This document shows positions 6,140 through 32,275 of a DNA stretch of 38,819 nucleotides, one piece after another. Within the stretch, counting starts at the first letter, position 1; each line of letters opens with the position of its first letter. Where the stretch lies: contig CAIXSY010000338.1 of assembly GCA_903922175.1 (NCBI GenBank), positions 1 to 38,819 of the forward strand, given 5' to 3'. The position numbers and the translations under genes are program-made. The stretch comes from an uncultured delta proteobacterium (GTDB lineage Bacteria > Bdellovibrionota_C > UBA2361 > CAIXSY01). The notes under the pieces were generated by a model. It did no database searches. It saw only the letters and a list, made by a program, of their open reading frames with translations, and was not told the origin of the DNA.

Positions 6140-6310
6140 GTAACTGCTCGCCCCTAATCGGCTAACGCTGACGTCAAACGTCTTACGCCGGACGTAAAAC
6201 GTCGACGTTGAACGTCCGGCGTTTGACCTTAGACGTCAGCGTCATCGGTTCTGAGAAAGGGCATTTTTCTGGAGTTACTTGCATAGTTTACGAAGGGAGC
6301 GAGTAGTTAC
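6140..6310. mobile_element. Family A hairpin MITE, copy 1 (171 bp), TSD CATTAATA
   Basis: Ends GTAACTGCTCGCCCCT / GGGAGCGAGTAGTTAC; perfect 8-bp TSD at 6132-6139 and 6311-6318. Confidence 0.92.
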
Positions 6311-22603: not shown

Positions 22604-22664
22604 TTGATATAGAGTATACTTATTCCGTTGTCGTTGACACTAGCGATCAATTTCTTGCTTTTTA

Positions 22665-22820
22665 GTAACTGGTCGGCACTATGTTACTCAGGCACGTTGT
22701 AGCAGTGGAGGTGCACAAAGGCTGCAATTAACGCGGAGGGGACAGAGTCAACGGTGGCAGAGGAGGGGAAATTCCCCCTCCTCTGCCACGGAGATAGCCT
22801 AAACTTTGCTGACTAGTTAC
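22665..22820. mobile_element. Family C hairpin element, copy 1
   Basis: GTAACTGGTCGGC ... GCTGACTAGTTAC; internal near-palindrome GGCAGAGGAGGGGAAATTCCCCCTCCTCTGCC; CTTTTTAG direct repeats at both edges. Confidence 0.8.
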
Positions 22821-22882
22821 AACTTTTTAGTTGCTTCCGCTAGGCGGCGCTGTGTAAAAGCTGCTATGCTGTGGCGGTGATT

Positions 22883-24289
22883 ATGCGTAGCAAGCTCCCT
22901 CTTCTGTTAATCTTGTCTTTGATCGTGGTCCTTTGCATAAACGGGGTGCGCGAGATTTACCAAGGACGCGGTGGTGCTTCGACCTATACCACCTCGCCAC
23001 GCAGCGCTTCTGCTCCTAAAGATTCTGGGTTCGACCAGAGTGGGTCATCACGAAAACCTCTCTTCAAGGATCCGAAGGCGCTGTTAAGAGAGGGTAAGAC
23101 GTTGCCGATCCTTAACACCCCGGTCACACCTCCAGCTAATGCAGAAGATCTGCCGCCTGCGGTAATGGCATTTCCTACCCCTCCGCTAAATTGGAAGGGA
23201 CAAACGGCGGTCACCTCTGCAACATCTGAGGCAGGCAGCCATCAAGGTATCTTAGAAGCCCTTGTCGAGGCACAGCAACCCGAAGTACCAACTCCTACGC
23301 CTTCAAGTCAAAACAGCGGAGACTACAGCGGTGGTCCTCCCATCACCAACAGGGTTTCAAGTAGCACCATACTTCCATCGCCCACCCCAAGTCCTTCACC
23401 CACTCCCTCAGAGTGGCTTACCGGACAGAGCAGGGGATACGCCATGCTCTACCTAATGCACCCCAACGCGCGACCAGCGGTTGACGAACAGGTTAGAATT
23501 ATTAAAGAGGCCAAGATTCGAGAGGTCTATATCGGCGTCCTGACCGACGGCACTTTCGGCGTCGATTTTGACTACCTTAATTCTGTCGTGCGCTCGCTCA
23601 ACGAAGACCAACGGGTAGTAACGTTGGAGCTTTACCTGAGTAATGGATCTTCAATGCGGGACTATCTGCAGAATCCAATTACGGGCGGCCTCAACCGCTT
23701 TAATCCACAGAATTTCCGCTCTCTTATTCGCTTCGATTCTCAAGTTCAGGCGCAGTTTCGATCGATGACGGCGGCAACCGTAGCCACATTTGAGTTAAAC
23801 CGCGCATTAAACGGCGCAAACCGCAACTATGCGGTGGTCATGCTTGAGGATAATCTTGAGCACGAGTCCTATTTGGCGATGCGCGACATTGCGCTCGAAG
23901 TCCTCGGTAGTCGAGCAATTATGCTTAGAAACCCATGCCCCGGATGCTGGCCGGGTAACGACGCTGACTCGCTCGGTGACCCGATCGAGTATCACGACGG
24001 CAAAAGTTTGCGTCAGTTAAAAAAAGGGGATGCATTTACACTTGATGGTATAGGATTTACCTTCCCCTGGGAGAGCGATCCGATGCAGATTTCCATCGGC
24101 CAGGTCAAAGCGCTCCAAACCCAGGCACAGATGCAAGGGTTGGCCTTTTTTGGGTTGTGGCGCAAGCAGCGTCAAGGTGTTGAGAACGGAAAAATCGATC
24201 CCGATCTGCGCAACTATGAAGTTCCAAGCGCCGAGCAGGCGGCGGTTGAGATTGAGATCCTGAGAAATGGGCTAACGGCCATAAGGTAA
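22883..24289 (+). CDS. Hypothetical exported/anchored protein with Pro/Ser/Thr linker and possible glycoside-hydrolase-like C-terminal domain
   Basis: N-terminal TM, PSPTPSPSPTPS linker, C-terminal globular domain with conserved-looking charged positions. Confidence 0.5.
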   Translation: MRSKLPLLLILSLIVVLCINGVREIYQGRGGASTYTTSPRSASAPKDSGFDQSGSSRKPLFKDPKALLREGKTLPILNTPVTPPANAEDLPPAVMAFPTPPLNWKGQTAVTSATSEAGSHQGILEALVEAQQPEVPTPTPSSQNSGDYSGGPPITNRVSSSTILPSPTPSPSPTPSEWLTGQSRGYAMLYLMHPNARPAVDEQVRIIKEAKIREVYIGVLTDGTFGVDFDYLNSVVRSLNEDQRVVTLELYLSNGSSMRDYLQNPITGGLNRFNPQNFRSLIRFDSQVQAQFRSMTAATVATFELNRALNGANRNYAVVMLEDNLEHESYLAMRDIALEVLGSRAIMLRNPCPGCWPGNDADSLGDPIEYHDGKSLRQLKKGDAFTLDGIGFTFPWESDPMQISIGQVKALQTQAQMQGLAFFGLWRKQRQGVENGKIDPDLRNYEVPSAEQAAVEIEILRNGLTAIR

Positions 24290-24423
24290 TATTTGTTATA
24301 TGAGTGATGAAACATGACGAGCAACGGTTCACTCATAGTGCTCAGTGGGACCAACCGGCCCGATTCCAATACTCTTCGCGTGGCGCAACGGGTATTCTCA
24401 CTGCTCGATCGCCGTCTTGTATT

Positions 24424-24513
24424 GAAAAGTAGGGACGCTACCGACTTATTTGTGAAAAGTAGGGACGCTACCGACTTATTTGAGGAAAAGTAGGGACGCT
24501 ACCGACTTATTTG
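24424..24513. repeat. RAYT-associated left REP-like array, 3 copies of GAAAAGTAGGGACGCTACCGACTTATTTG
   Basis: Copies at 24424-24452, 24454-24482, 24485-24513, identical. Confidence 0.95.
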
Positions 24514-24555
24514 CATTTTTAAGCAACTTTTCACCGAAGTTACCGAAAATAGTGC

Positions 24556-25239
24556 ATGGCGCGCACTGCAAGAGTAGTTATTCCCGGTATTCTTCATCAC
24601 ATTACTCAACGAGGTAATAGAAGGGAGGATGTCTTCTATGATGACGAGGACAAGTTTTTCTTCATGGACCGGCTTCTCTCATACTCAGCTCGAGCTGGGC
24701 TGTTGTTAGCTTCTCACTGCCTCATGACTAATCACACACACCTACTTGCAGTGCCGGAAGAGAAGGATAGCCTTGAGCGCACCTTTAAGCCCCTTCATTT
24801 GGTTTACTCACAATATCTTAACAAGAGATTCAATCGAACGGGGATAAACTGGCAAGGGCGCTATTTCTCAAGCCCGCTGGATGACGAGCACTCTTGGTAC
24901 GCATTTCAGTACGTCGCGCTAAATCCAGTGAAGGCCGACATAGTAAGCAATTTTCAGGAATACTCATGGTCAAGTGCTCGAGATCTGCTCTCCAATAGGC
25001 CCCAGTCCGCGCTCACCGCCGGTCCCAAATGGCTCTCCATGGGGCATGATGCCCTTGCGCAACTTCTAGACCACGACACGTATCAGCCAAACGAAGTAGC
25101 TTTCGAGCACCTAGAAAAAATGGGTGCAAGAAACCTTCCAGTCGGTTCGGATGATTTTATCGCGCGACTGGAGAAAGAAACCGGACGCACGCTTCGGCCT
25201 AAGCCAATAGGTCGTCCGAGAAAGGTGGAAAGTAGGTAG
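24556..25239 (+). CDS. REP-associated tyrosine transposase (RAYT, Y1_Tnp/TnpA_REP)
   Basis: HHITQRGNRRE, LMTNHTHLL (HUH), QGRYFSSPL, YVALNPVKADIV; C-terminus GRPRKVESR*. Confidence 0.92.
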   Translation: MARTARVVIPGILHHITQRGNRREDVFYDDEDKFFFMDRLLSYSARAGLLLASHCLMTNHTHLLAVPEEKDSLERTFKPLHLVYSQYLNKRFNRTGINWQGRYFSSPLDDEHSWYAFQYVALNPVKADIVSNFQEYSWSSARDLLSNRPQSALTAGPKWLSMGHDALAQLLDHDTYQPNEVAFEHLEKMGARNLPVGSDDFIARLEKETGRTLRPKPIGRPRKVESR

Positions 25240-25392
25240 CGTCCCTAATTTTCCCCAATTTTCCCTAATAGGTCGTCCGAGAAAGGTGGAAAGTAGGTAG
25301 CGTCCCTAATTTTCCCTCGAGAAAGGTGGAAAGTAGGTAGCGTCCCTAATTTTCCAAGAAAGGTGGAAAGTAGGTAGCGTCCCTAATTTTCC
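25218..25392. repeat. RAYT-associated right array, 4 copies of GAGAAAGGTGGAAAGTAGGTAGCGTCCCTAATTTTCC (inverted relative to the left array)
   Basis: Copies at about 25218-25254, 25280-25315, 25319-25355, 25357-25392. Confidence 0.95.
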
Positions 25393-25416
25393 AGCAGCGC
25401 GCGCACGCGCGCTGCT
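25393..25416. repeat. GC-rich hairpin at the end of the amidohydrolase gene
   Basis: AGCAGCGCGC-GCAC-GCGCGCTGCT. Confidence 0.85.
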
Positions 25417-26206
25417 AGCGGAGCCTAAGCTGCCCCATCCTACGCAGGCACCCCAACACCCCCAGCCGCCGGCCCACCCGCACAAGCTCACTGGCGGGAG
25501 AGGTAAGAAGGACACGGCGCATCTCGGCCGAGGGGTGCGTCTGGTCAAAGCTACCGCCGTAAAAGGTGGCATAGGCTCCGATTCGCTCCTCCTCACCAGC
25601 AATCGGCAGTGGATCGGTGCCATAGATGCACGAGATGCCGCGCTCTGCGGCTATATCGTAGAGTCCGGGCGTGGGGTACCCGCTGGGGCGAAGCGCAGGA
25701 TCTGAGATTAGGCACGAACCTCGACCTTCCTGCTCTAAGAGCCGGAGCATAATCTCCCGTCGCTCCCCTAGCCACTTTCCAAGAGCCCAGGGGTAACTCA
25801 AAACAGCACCTGCTTCTAGGTAGCGCGTCCGCGCTTCGGATATGGGAGTTCCGTCGGGAACGATTACGTCGACCAACAGGGCGTGAGCCTCCAAGCGCTC
25901 AGCACAGGCCACCTGTCGTCCCGAAAAAACCAACAATGGCGGATACTTAGATGATGTCACGGACAAGCACTGACTGCCGTCTAGCGGACAGAGCTCAAAT
26001 CCGCTCAGCGCGAAGTGGCGATCTGCCAAGCTTCTAAAAAAGCTACATTGCTCACGCTCGGTAAGAATTATGGCCCGCGTGGCCCCCATCGCCGACGGCC
26101 CTATTTGGGTCAAAATATGGGTGAAGTTCTTGTGCACCGAGGCCAGCAGGCGCGACAGGTCGTAATTTTTGTAAATATGGACATGCGAGTCTAAAATTAG
26201 TGGCAT
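25415..26206 (-). CDS. Metal-dependent amidohydrolase/TatD-like hydrolase
   Basis: N-terminal DSHVHIY motif, overall TIM-barrel-like length; stop codon lies in a GC hairpin. Confidence 0.6.
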   Translation of the reverse strand: MPLILDSHVHIYKNYDLSRLLASVHKNFTHILTQIGPSAMGATRAIILTEREQCSFFRSLADRHFALSGFELCPLDGSQCLSVTSSKYPPLLVFSGRQVACAERLEAHALLVDVIVPDGTPISEARTRYLEAGAVLSYPWALGKWLGERREIMLRLLEQEGRGSCLISDPALRPSGYPTPGLYDIAAERGISCIYGTDPLPIAGEEERIGAYATFYGGSFDQTHPSAEMRRVLLTSPASELVRVGRRLGVLGCLRRMGQLRLR

Positions 26207-26316
26207 AACAGTGGGTTATAAGGCACCCTAGCGCACGGGTCAACGATCCCGTCAAGATATGAATGATTCTTCAAATATATTATTCCTAGTGGTGTAACCG
26301 CCTGCGGAGTTTTATA

Positions 26317-27552
26317 TTGCCAACTAATTCCGATTGCTGGCAATCTGAAGATAGGATTGGTTTTTTTGATTTTATAGCGAAGGTCGTTATGGTGAATTCC
26401 GCCTTACGGGTTGTTGAAGGATCTCCTTTTTACAGGGAGGAAGTAGAGCTTTGGTCAGAGGAGTCTCCCGAAGTTAGCCATTCGTTACATGGACTGATCT
26501 CCTACCCGGAGAGTTTCAACGCGGAGTTGCCCGGTTATTTTATCAGAAAATATACCAAGCGAGGGCAGGTCGTGCTCGATCCTTTCTCTGGATCCGGTGC
26601 CACGGCGCTAGAAGCAGCCATGCAGGGCAGAGTCGCCTTCGCCAGTGATATAAGCCCCTTGGCGCAACTTATAACGGCAGTTAAGCTATCGCCAGCAGAC
26701 ATCACCGAGGTTACCTTGCGTTTGCAGCGAATCAACTTTCGCCGTCCAATCAACCTCGATCTTTATCGCGCCAGGTTCGCCCCTTTCTACGACGTCGACA
26801 CCTTCCGCGAGATATGCAATTTGCGGGCTTTTTTAAGTGAGCAGAGCGACCGCGTGTCGTCTTTTATCTCAGCCGTAGCGATCTCACTCCTGCACGGGCA
26901 TAGCGCCGGGTATTTTTCGGTTTATTCTTTTCCTCAGATATCACTTACCTCGGAGGAGCAAGAGGTCGTCAACTTAAAACGTAGGCAGGTGGCCGACTAT
27001 CGCGCCATAGTGCCACGTATCCTTCGAAAAACCGCATCCGTTCTGCGCGATGGCTGGCCAAGCACCGTGCGTGCCCTGGACAAGTCGCATCGCACCTCGG
27101 TCTGTGATGCGCGAAATCTCGACTACGTGCCGACGGCATCAGTCGATCTGATGGTAACGGCCCCCATTGTCCCAGGCGCCAAGGATTTTACCTCTGAGCT
27201 TTGGCTGCGTTATTGGTTTGCACATGTTAGCGTACCTCAAATTCCCGACTATTCCAGCACGAGCGATCTTGCTGGCTGGCGCGAATTCATGAACGAAATG
27301 CTGCTCGAAGCTGCACGCGTGGTTCGTAGCGGTGGCCGTTGCGTGCTCGATCTGCACGAGCTACGCACGCGCACGGGGACGATCTTGCTTGAAGAGGAGG
27401 TTGTGGATCTCGTTGAGCAGCACCTAGCGCGTTACTGGGGTGTGGAGTGTGTGCTTATCAATACACCAAAGTTTGCTAAGCTAAAAAACTGCCTCAAGGA
27501 GCGTGACACTTTTAAAGTAACTAACCGGCTCCTCGTACTACGAAGGAAGTAG
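26317..27552 (+). CDS. DNA/RNA methyltransferase-like protein (MT-A70/TRM11/DNA methylase type fold) with altered catalytic motif
   Basis: DPFSGSGATALEAAMQGRVAFASDISPLA matches motif I region; SPPY position reads TAPIVPGAKDF; alternative ATG at 26389. Confidence 0.7.
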   Translation: MPTNSDCWQSEDRIGFFDFIAKVVMVNSALRVVEGSPFYREEVELWSEESPEVSHSLHGLISYPESFNAELPGYFIRKYTKRGQVVLDPFSGSGATALEAAMQGRVAFASDISPLAQLITAVKLSPADITEVTLRLQRINFRRPINLDLYRARFAPFYDVDTFREICNLRAFLSEQSDRVSSFISAVAISLLHGHSAGYFSVYSFPQISLTSEEQEVVNLKRRQVADYRAIVPRILRKTASVLRDGWPSTVRALDKSHRTSVCDARNLDYVPTASVDLMVTAPIVPGAKDFTSELWLRYWFAHVSVPQIPDYSSTSDLAGWREFMNEMLLEAARVVRSGGRCVLDLHELRTRTGTILLEEEVVDLVEQHLARYWGVECVLINTPKFAKLKNCLKERDTFKVTNRLLVLRRK

Positions 27553-27553
27553 C

Positions 27554-28978
27554 GTGGCACAGGTTGCCTGTCCTCGGATCTTGATCTCTGGCATTGGCCC
27601 TGGCGTAGGAAAGTCTCTTATTTCAATCGGCCTCGTCCATGAGCTGCGCAAACGCTCGATAAGCGTCTCCTGTTGCGTGGTTGGTCCCAACTTAGTGCAG
27701 GCCTCGATCCTCAAGCGTCTTACGGGGCGCTACGTGCGTTGCCTTGACGGCTGCATTCTCTCCTCTAGCCAGAACCTAAACTCGCTTTCCCAGGCGGCAA
27801 GTGGTGCCGACATTGTCGTCATCGAGGGCAATGCCGGGCTATTCGACGGCTACTCGGCGGGCACGCTGCGCGGCTCCGATGCGGAGATTGCCGGAATCTC
27901 CCGATCTCCGGTGATCCTCGTGGCTGATGTTTCGAACTTCGGAAATAGCCTCATCGCCCTGATCAAGGGGTACGCTGCTTTTGCTAAGAACTTTACGGTT
28001 GCGGGCAGTATCCTTAACCGCACTGCAACCAAGAACGGGATCGACGACGAAGGGCGCCCCGACCTCCACGATCGTGAGTTTTTCGAGGTGGCGATGCAGG
28101 CTTTCGGCATGCCCAAGCTCATCGGCGCATTGCCCGTGCTCCCCTTTGAATGTGACGTGCCTCGCTATTGCCTCTCCGAGCGGAAAAATCTCTCCGCGAT
28201 CAGCCGCCAGTTCTTCTACCGTGTCGGGGAGGTAGTCAATCAATGCATCGATGTCTCGGCCATACTTAGCCAAGCATCAACCCCGCGCCCAGTCGAGAGC
28301 GGCGAGAGCATGGAGCTCCCCAATCGCCGCCGCACGCGAATAGCGATCGCCGACGATTCCTGTTTTAATCTCTGTTTTCAGGATAACCTCGACCTCCTGC
28401 GCCACTTCGGTGCCGAGCTCGTTTCATTCTCGCCGCTTGCCGATGCCAAGCTGCCACCGAGGATCGGCGCGGTATACCTGACGGGCGCCTACCTCTCTGA
28501 GTATGCAGAGATCCTGGCACAGAACCAGAGTTTACGTAATTCCATCCAAGAGTTCGTTCAGCAGGGTGGCGTACTTTATGCGGAGAGTGGGGGAGCGGCA
28601 TTCCTCTGTGATCAGTACGAATTCCCCGAGGACGACCGCTCCTATCCCGGCGTAGGAGTCTTGCCCGGCATCGCCACCTTCAAACCCGGACGCTTCTCCT
28701 ATCAGGAGGTTGTCAGTGTCGACGACTCGATCTTCGGTGACTCGGGCGTGATCGCCAAAGGGGTCTCCACGGGGGAGTGGGAATACAGCGAGGGGCGCAA
28801 AATCGTTAGGGTTTTTCGCTGTTCCGTAGATGGCAGGAGAACACACCAAGAGGGCTACTCGCCCAGCGCACAGTCAGTGGCAACCTTCAGCTTTCTGCAC
28901 TTTGCTTCTAATCCGCAGCTGGCGCGCTCGATCGTCGAAGCGGCAGAGGTTGTTTCTGGCTCTTCCGAGTCTCCGTAA
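27554..28978 (+). CDS. Cobyrinic acid a,c-diamide synthase-like (CobB/CbiA family) protein
   Basis: P-loop SGIGPGVGKSLISIGL, VIEGNAGLFDG, GATase-like region FVQQGGVLYAESGGAAFL. Confidence 0.78.
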   Translation: MAQVACPRILISGIGPGVGKSLISIGLVHELRKRSISVSCCVVGPNLVQASILKRLTGRYVRCLDGCILSSSQNLNSLSQAASGADIVVIEGNAGLFDGYSAGTLRGSDAEIAGISRSPVILVADVSNFGNSLIALIKGYAAFAKNFTVAGSILNRTATKNGIDDEGRPDLHDREFFEVAMQAFGMPKLIGALPVLPFECDVPRYCLSERKNLSAISRQFFYRVGEVVNQCIDVSAILSQASTPRPVESGESMELPNRRRTRIAIADDSCFNLCFQDNLDLLRHFGAELVSFSPLADAKLPPRIGAVYLTGAYLSEYAEILAQNQSLRNSIQEFVQQGGVLYAESGGAAFLCDQYEFPEDDRSYPGVGVLPGIATFKPGRFSYQEVVSVDDSIFGDSGVIAKGVSTGEWEYSEGRKIVRVFRCSVDGRRTHQEGYSPSAQSVATFSFLHFASNPQLARSIVEAAEVVSGSSESP

Positions 28979-29121
28979 TCAGCTGAAATTTCTCACATAA
29001 CACACGAGCCGAGAAGTCGCGCTAACAATTCATGCGGATTCCTTGATGCTCTTTGCGCTGAAAACATCCTACGCTGTTGCTTTTTTTAAAAAAACTGGCG
29101 TAGGTTACCAATCGGCTGATA

Positions 29122-29506
29122 AGGCCCTATTAATTAATAAAGGTGCCAATTTGCATCTCATCTTCAGACCATCTTTGAATTTTTGTAACTGGTCAGCACC
29201 TTGCCATTGCATACAACATGTTTCACACGGAGATCCACCGAGGTCTCACGGAGTTCCACAGGAGGCTGCGTGGTGGGACCCAGCACTACCCCCTCCGTGT
29301 AACTCCGTGAGATCTCGGTGGATCTCCGTGTGAAACATGGCGATTATTGCGCATCTTCCAATGGCGCTGACTAGATACGAATTTTTTTGAGTGGGAAAAA
29401 TCCTCGATATAGTGATACTATGTCTGCGGTTTTTCCCGCTCAAAGAAAATTCAAATTTGACCTAAATCTGAGCGCAACTTGACACCTTTATTAATTAACA
29501 GGGCCT
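29122..29506. repeat. Long inverted-repeat element hosting the family C copy 2 insertion
   Basis: AGGCCCTATTAATTAATAAAGGTG (29122-29145) vs CACCTTTATTAATTAACAGGGCCT (29483-29506), 23/24 complementary; complementarity resumes at TTTGAATTTT..GAGTGGGAAAAA. Confidence 0.85.
29185..29378. mobile_element. Family C hairpin element, copy 2 (194 bp), TSD GAATTTTT
   Basis: GTAACTGGTCAGC ... GCTGACTAGATAC; perfect 8-bp TSD at 29177-29184 and 29379-29386; internal 39-bp stem with 1 mismatch. Confidence 0.92.
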
Positions 29507-32101: not shown

Positions 32102-32275
32102 GTAATTGCTCATTAACCACGGGTGAAAGTGCCTAGATCCTAGTCCTGGTCATGGTTCTGGTCTTAAGTCATAGTCGTGTTCTTGGCCGCAATCATTGAC
32201 TAATTGACCAGGATTTAGGACCAGGACCATAACCAAGACTAAGACAAGATTTCCCCGGGGTTATTGAGCAGATAC
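32102..32275. mobile_element. Family B hairpin element, copy with 8-bp TSD CAGGT(A/G)AA
   Basis: GTAATTGCTCATTAACCACGGG ... CCCCGGGGTTATTGAGCAGATAC; flanks CAGGTAAA / CAGGTGAA. Confidence 0.88.

What the first reader, a model, noticed from the sequence alone, without database searches (positions are those of the whole stretch)
22657..29386. Family C: a third hairpin element type with GTAACTGGTCAGC ends and 8-bp TSD
29185-29378 has ends GTAACTGGTCAGC/GCTGACTAGATAC, a perfect GAATTTTT TSD and a 39-bp internal stem with one mismatch. 22665-22820 has GTAACTGGTCGGC/GCTGACTAGTTAC, an unrelated internal near-palindrome (GGCAGAGGAGGGGAAATTCCCC...) and CTTTTTAG repeats at both edges. The interiors are different hairpins; only the ends are conserved, suggesting the transposition machinery captures arbitrary hairpin cargo.
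Basis: partly seen in the sequence, partly recalled or inferred. Interest (0 to 1): 0.75.

Follow-up and report, generated by a model that had tools for sequence, protein, structure and literature searches.

The report
Hairpin mini-transposons with IS66-type ends
Both sites are small gene-less jumping DNA elements whose ends match a known bacterial transposon group (IS66, ISBst12 type); the host genome carries many of them, and the same hairpin-shaped middles turn up between different kinds of ends, as if middles and ends had been swapped and the hybrids had then spread.

Summary
Window 29185-29378 is a 194-bp element with GTAACTGGTCAGC/GTATCTAGTCAGC ends, a perfect 8-bp duplication and a 39-bp stem. 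It lies inside another repeat whose other copies are intact at that point, so the insertion is shown directly. Window 22665-22820 has the same ends and another hairpin; its 8-bp repeat is 1-2 bp out of register, and the element is one of about 20 related places. The end motif occurs 43 times in this MAG (control 0). Two further end classes, GTAACTGCTCAAT and GTAACTGCTCGCC, also make 8-bp duplications. Ends and duplication match single-ORF IS66 transposons (ISBst12 group): one in the same order has GTAACTATTCAGC at both ends, a viral-contig relative has nearly the same ends with a perfect 8-bp duplication, and published ISDge4, seen to transpose, has GTAACTGCTCAGCA. These are very likely IS66-type MITEs. 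Unusual is the modularity: one end class frames several unrelated hairpins, two hairpins recur between different end classes with homology starting near the hairpin base, and both hybrids have about six near-full-length copies. 'Captures arbitrary hairpin cargo' is partly supported; the exchange mechanism is unknown. No intact cognate transposase was found in this assembly.

The parts
29177..29184 (.). target-site duplication GAATTTTT, left copy
   Evidence: empty sites in four other copies of the host repeat
29185..29378 (+). 194-bp non-autonomous element, subfamily C1 (CACGGAG hairpin)
   Evidence: ends, TSD, empty site; about 40 related places in the genome
29185..29197 (+). left end GTAACTGGTCAGC
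29366..29378 (-). right end GTATCTAGTCAGC
29217..29255 (+). left arm of the 39-bp stem
29301..29339 (+). right arm of the 39-bp stem
29379..29386 (.). target-site duplication GAATTTTT, right copy
29123..29505 (.). host repeat (GGCCCTRTTAATTAATAAAGGTG ends, about 181 bp when empty, TAA on both sides) that the C1 copy interrupts
   Evidence: uninterrupted copies in L067, L087, L171, L178; difference of 202 bp = 194 + 8
22665..22820 (+). 156-bp non-autonomous element, subfamily C4 (CAGGCACGTTGTAGCAGTGGAGG interior)
   Evidence: ends; related places, several with GTAACTATTCAGC ends
22754..22789 (+). near-palindromic hairpin of the C4 copy
   Evidence: z = -7.0
22658..22665 (.). CTTTTTAG, left copy of a probable, slightly out-of-register TSD
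22823..22830 (.). CTTTTTAG, right copy
6140..6310 (+). related class-B element (GTAACTGCTCGCC ends, GACGTC hairpin), TSD CATTAATA
   Evidence: hairpin homologous to that of class-C subfamily C2
17278..17449 (+). related class-B element, TSD AAAAGGAG
32102..32275 (+). related class-A element, flanking 8-mers CAGGTAAA/CAGGTGAA

Best explanation
These are miniature inverted-repeat elements (MITEs) mobilised in trans by a transposase of the IS66 family, ISBst12 (single-ORF) group. The transposase recognises the roughly 13-bp GTAACTRNTCRGC tips and inserts the element with an 8-bp duplication. The interior only has to be tolerated and is usually a long hairpin. Shown: ends, TSDs, an empty site, copy number, matching tips and 8-bp TSD on IS66 single-ORF elements elsewhere, and recurrence of the same hairpin between different tip classes. 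Inferred: that an ISBst12-type transposase did the moving, that its gene has been lost from or missed in this assembly, and that tips and hairpins were joined by recombination or template switching near the base of the hairpin, after which hybrids with matched tips spread.
For: Motif 43 versus 0. TSD pairs 27 versus 1 and 37 versus 3. Empty site. L121 (same order; its record is titled Proteobacteria bacterium): 482-aa PF03050 transposase, 153 bits, with GTAACTATTCAGC exactly at both ends. L130 (48% identical protein): the same ends. L253 (46% identical): GCAACTATTCAGC / GTAACTATTCAGC with perfect TSD GCGTATTT. L133: GTAACTACTCAGC / GTAACTATTCAGT with TSD TTTTATTC. Published ISDge4, ISBst12 group: ends GTGACTACTCAGCA / GTAACTGCTCAGCA, 8-bp repeat, transposition observed (PMC12898284). 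Some C1 and C4 copies in this genome carry exactly GTAACTATTCAGC. Modularity.
Against: No intact IS66 gene with cognate ends in the 432-contig assembly. Its one full IS66 element has different ends (GTGTCCTTTCGGCAAG) and the remaining matches are fragments. L121 lies on a 2.5-kb contig that could be misbinned, and neither L121 nor L130 has a clean TSD. Class A and B tips differ from known ISBst12 tips at a few positions and may need a different transposase.
Confidence: 0.85

Rival explanations
1. The hairpins are separate small mobile or repetitive palindromes (REP-like) that insert into, or carry, GTAAC-ended elements; the ends and hairpins have independent mobility.
For: One core (CTGGGAGCGCGGACGTCCTCGTCCGC type) lies both between class-A ends with a perfect TSD (L198:865-1009) and inside a C4-type element (L185:17445-17543).
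Against: For the eight cores tested, most copies away from contig edges had GTAAC-type tips on one or both sides and few had none. Homology between classes begins near the hairpin base on both sides rather than with a new TSD.
Confidence: 0.12
2. Transcribed hairpins under selection (terminators, RNA-stability or regulatory elements) that happen to share ends.
For: Hairpins are strong: median z -6.0 with tips removed, 30 of 35 below -3, against 3 of 60 random controls.
Against: No covariation above shuffles across 20 C1 copies: 5 pairs with changes on both sides against 3.8 expected. Precise TSDs and the empty site show transposition.
Confidence: 0.08
3. A transposase of a different DDE family with GTAAC-like ends and 8-bp target duplication mobilises them.
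For: No cognate IS66 gene was found in the genome itself.
Against: IS66 single-ORF elements in several lineages have nearly the same 13-bp tips and 8-bp TSDs.
Confidence: 0.1
4. Ordinary internal-deletion MITEs that only diverged by mutation, with no exchange of ends and hairpins.
For: Tips of classes A, B and C are similar and could have diverged; mixed C and GTAACTATTCAGC tips occur within the C1 family.
Against: Outside the hairpins the classes align poorly, yet the GACGTC core (81 bp, 84%, E about 3e-21) and the CACGGAG core (E about 6e-17) are shared across classes.
Confidence: 0.2

Closest known systems
ISBst12 group of IS66 (ISDge4, Deinococcus geothermalis; PMC12898284)
   Same: tips GTAACTGCTCAGCA / GTGACTACTCAGCA and 8-bp direct repeat; single transposase ORF in the presumed partner elements
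   Different: the elements here encode no transposase, are mostly 84-400 bp long and are built around hairpins
IS66 family in general (PMC11946415)
   Same: 8-bp direct repeats, ends beginning GTAA
   Different: classic IS66 ends read GTAAGCG with 20-30 bp repeats; here GTAACTRNTCRGC, conserved over about 13 bp
Bacterial MITEs such as MITEPsy1 (PMC3189936) and MITECca01 (PMC9769881)
   Same: short, non-autonomous, transposase-type ends, multicopy
   Different: those are single families tied to one parental IS (IS5-like, IS982); here several end classes share hairpin interiors
REP palindromes with RAYT transposases (PMC3733652)
   Same: abundant hairpin-forming repeats
   Different: REPs are 20-40 bp with GTAG or CGTC tags; these have 8-bp TSDs and IS66-type ends

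Membership tests
MITE of the IS66/ISBst12 group | terminal inverted repeats matching those of ISBst12-group IS elements | tested here: met
   C tips differ by one or two positions of 13 from the tips of L121, L130, L253 and published ISDge4; some C1 and C4 copies are identical to L121
MITE of the IS66/ISBst12 group | 8-bp target-site duplication | tested here: met
   empty site
MITE of the IS66/ISBst12 group | short and without a transposase gene | tested here: met
   elements of about 84-400 bp; no window ORF of 100 aa or more lies inside 29185-29378 or 22665-22820
MITE of the IS66/ISBst12 group | cognate transposase present in the same genome | tested here: inconclusive
   only an IS66 with other ends and fragments found in a fragmented MAG
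MITE of the IS66/ISBst12 group | interior derived from the parental IS | not tested
   no formal alignment of interiors to L121; similarity seen by eye only in the first 18 or so bp
MITE of the IS66/ISBst12 group | mobilised in trans by the transposase | not testable with these tools
   needs an experiment
IS66 (presumed partner L121) | DDE_Tnp_IS66 transposase | tested here: met
   PF03050, E = 1.5e-44, 153 bits
IS66, ISBst12 group (presumed partner L121) | single ORF, no TnpA or TnpB | tested here: met
   one 482-aa ORF fills the 1526-bp element L121:293-1818
REP/RAYT | 20-40 bp palindrome with GTAG or CGTC tag | tested here: not met
   elements of about 84-400 bp with 13-bp ends and 8-bp TSDs

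The most novel reading that the evidence does not exclude
A family of IS66-type MITEs evolves by module exchange: transposase-recognised tips and hairpin cores are separate, interchangeable cassettes that recombine near the base of the hairpin, and the resulting hybrids transpose and amplify, so that new palindromic sequences keep being recruited as cargo.
Probability: 0.45. Interest if true: 0.62.

Novelty: new variant of a known kind. Interest (0 to 1): 0.5.

Why it matters
My searches of the held library found no described MITE of the IS66 family, and none of the bacterial MITE papers I consulted reports one set of ends framing many unrelated hairpins with the same hairpins recurring between different ends; the library lacks most subscription journals, so this is not proof of absence. 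If the exchange is real, it gives a traceable case of how new MITE families can form without internal deletion of a parent IS, and it asks whether hairpin formation helps bring the two ends together. Practically, several hundred such elements would explain many of this genome's intergenic repeats and perhaps its fragmentation.

Tried and rejected
The full IS66 element of this genome (C429) was considered as the parent and rejected, since its ends are GTGTCCTTTCGGCAAG. Covariation in C1 as a sign of selection on the hairpin: no signal above shuffles. The seven TTAATTAA hits of the agnostic scan are not TSDs but part of another repeat's own inverted repeat. Two literature searches for modular or palindromic MITEs gave nothing.

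Full report
Observation. Both sites are as described. The 29185-29378 element has a perfect 8-bp duplication and a 39-bp stem. It sits in a host repeat, 29123-29505, whose other copies (L067, L087, L171, L178) read on without interruption through the insertion point; the difference is 202 bp = 194 + 8. This is an empty-site demonstration of insertion. The 22665-22820 element has the same ends and another hairpin. Its CTTTTTAG repeats are 1-2 bp out of register, so the TSD is probable but damaged (chance about 1e-3).

Extent. GTAACTRGTCRGC occurs 43 times in the 4.79-Mb MAG against 0 for the reversed control, and the looser GTAACTRNTC 590 times against 64. A relative of the same order, G010, has 43 matches to GTAACTRNTCRGC against 0, with a 215-bp family carrying 8-bp TSDs. 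An end-agnostic scan of 1.20 Mb found 37 candidate elements against 3 for the displaced control; 24 of these are GTAAC-type. With a looser TSD (6 or more of 8), 46 pairs were found, and ends pair almost only within their class: A/A 20, C/C 12, B/B 10, three with GTAACTATTCAGC tips, one discordant.

Subfamilies. Class C frames at least four interiors: C1 (CACGGAG hairpin, about 40 places), C2 (GACGTC hairpin), C3 (TTTTGCCCTGACTCTTCG, with a doubled tip GTAACTAGTCAGCACACTGC-GTAACTGGTCAGA at one end) and C4 (the 22665 type, about 20 places). Class A frames at least five unrelated hairpins. With tips removed, 30 of 35 TSD-supported elements fold with z below -3, against 3 of 60 random controls.

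Partner. Nearly the same tips border single-ORF IS66 elements. L121 has GTAACTATTCAGC at both ends of a 1526-bp element with a 482-aa PF03050 protein. L130 (48% identical) has the same tips. L253 (46% identical) has GCAACTATTCAGC / GTAACTATTCAGC with TSD GCGTATTT. L133, an archaeal relative with one stop codon in its reading frame, has TSD TTTTATTC. ISDge4, published as ISBst12 group and seen to transpose, has GTGACTACTCAGCA / GTAACTGCTCAGCA and an 8-bp repeat (PMC12898284). Multi-gene IS66 elements of this order can also have GTAAC ends: L124 (GTAACCGTCCACT) and the apparently decayed L118 (GTAACCGTCCTTT, TSD ATCTCAGG). In the window's genome itself only an IS66 with other ends and fragments were found. 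The trans-mobilisation step is therefore inferred.

Modularity. The GACGTC hairpin is shared by class B and C2 (81 bp, 84%, E about 3e-21). The CACGGAG hairpin is shared by C1 and a class-A hybrid (E about 6e-17). In both cases the alignment is good within the hairpin and poor outside its base. The hybrids amplified: the A/CACGGAG hybrid has six near-full-length copies at 89-100% plus many partial ones, and C2 has six at 79-100%. Few of these hybrid copies have intact TSDs, so many are old or rearranged. A third tip type, GGTTCCTCACC, carries class-A subterminal sequence and a GGTCGTG hairpin with TSD GGATTTTG (L043:1627-5549, interrupted by an IS66). Most core copies away from contig edges have tips on at least one side, so the cores do not look freely mobile. 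No covariation was seen in C1, so selection on pairing is not supported.

Verdict. Transposition is shown. IS66/ISBst12-type mobilisation is very likely. Exchange of hairpin cores between end classes is well supported as a pattern, but its mechanism is open. The host is an unnamed MAG (94% complete, 6.8% contamination), and the genome-wide family and copy counts depend on a fragmented assembly.

Noticed in passing
window 29123-29505: Multicopy repeat of about 181 bp with GGCCCTRTTAATTAATAAAGGTG inverted ends and TAA on both sides (probably a 3-bp target duplication), a separate MITE-like family.
   Followed up: partly
L043:1627-5549 (G000:C429): IS66 element with TnpB, a DruA-domain passenger (PF14236) and TnpC (ends GTGTCCTTTCGGCAAG, TSD AAGTTTCT) inserted inside a GGTTCCTCACC-ended hairpin element with TSD GGATTTTG.
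   Followed up: partly
L057:277-417, L087:13341-13486: Short elements with GGCTCTTCGCGC / GGCTCTTCGGGC ends and perfect 8-bp TSDs; another MITE family, with ends resembling ISL3 (from memory).
   Followed up: no
L017, L024, L002, L062: C3 elements carry a doubled tip at one end only (GTAACTAGTCAGCACACTGC followed by GTAACTGGTCAGA), making the two ends unequal.
   Followed up: partly
L060:19547-19928: Class-A element with TSD GCTATAGA containing a nested C1 insertion with its own near-perfect duplication (7 of 8).
   Followed up: partly
L198:865-1009: Class-A ends with perfect TSD GCTAAAAG framing a CTGGGAGCGCGGACGTCC-type palindrome that also lies inside a C4-type element at L185:17445-17543.
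   Followed up: partly
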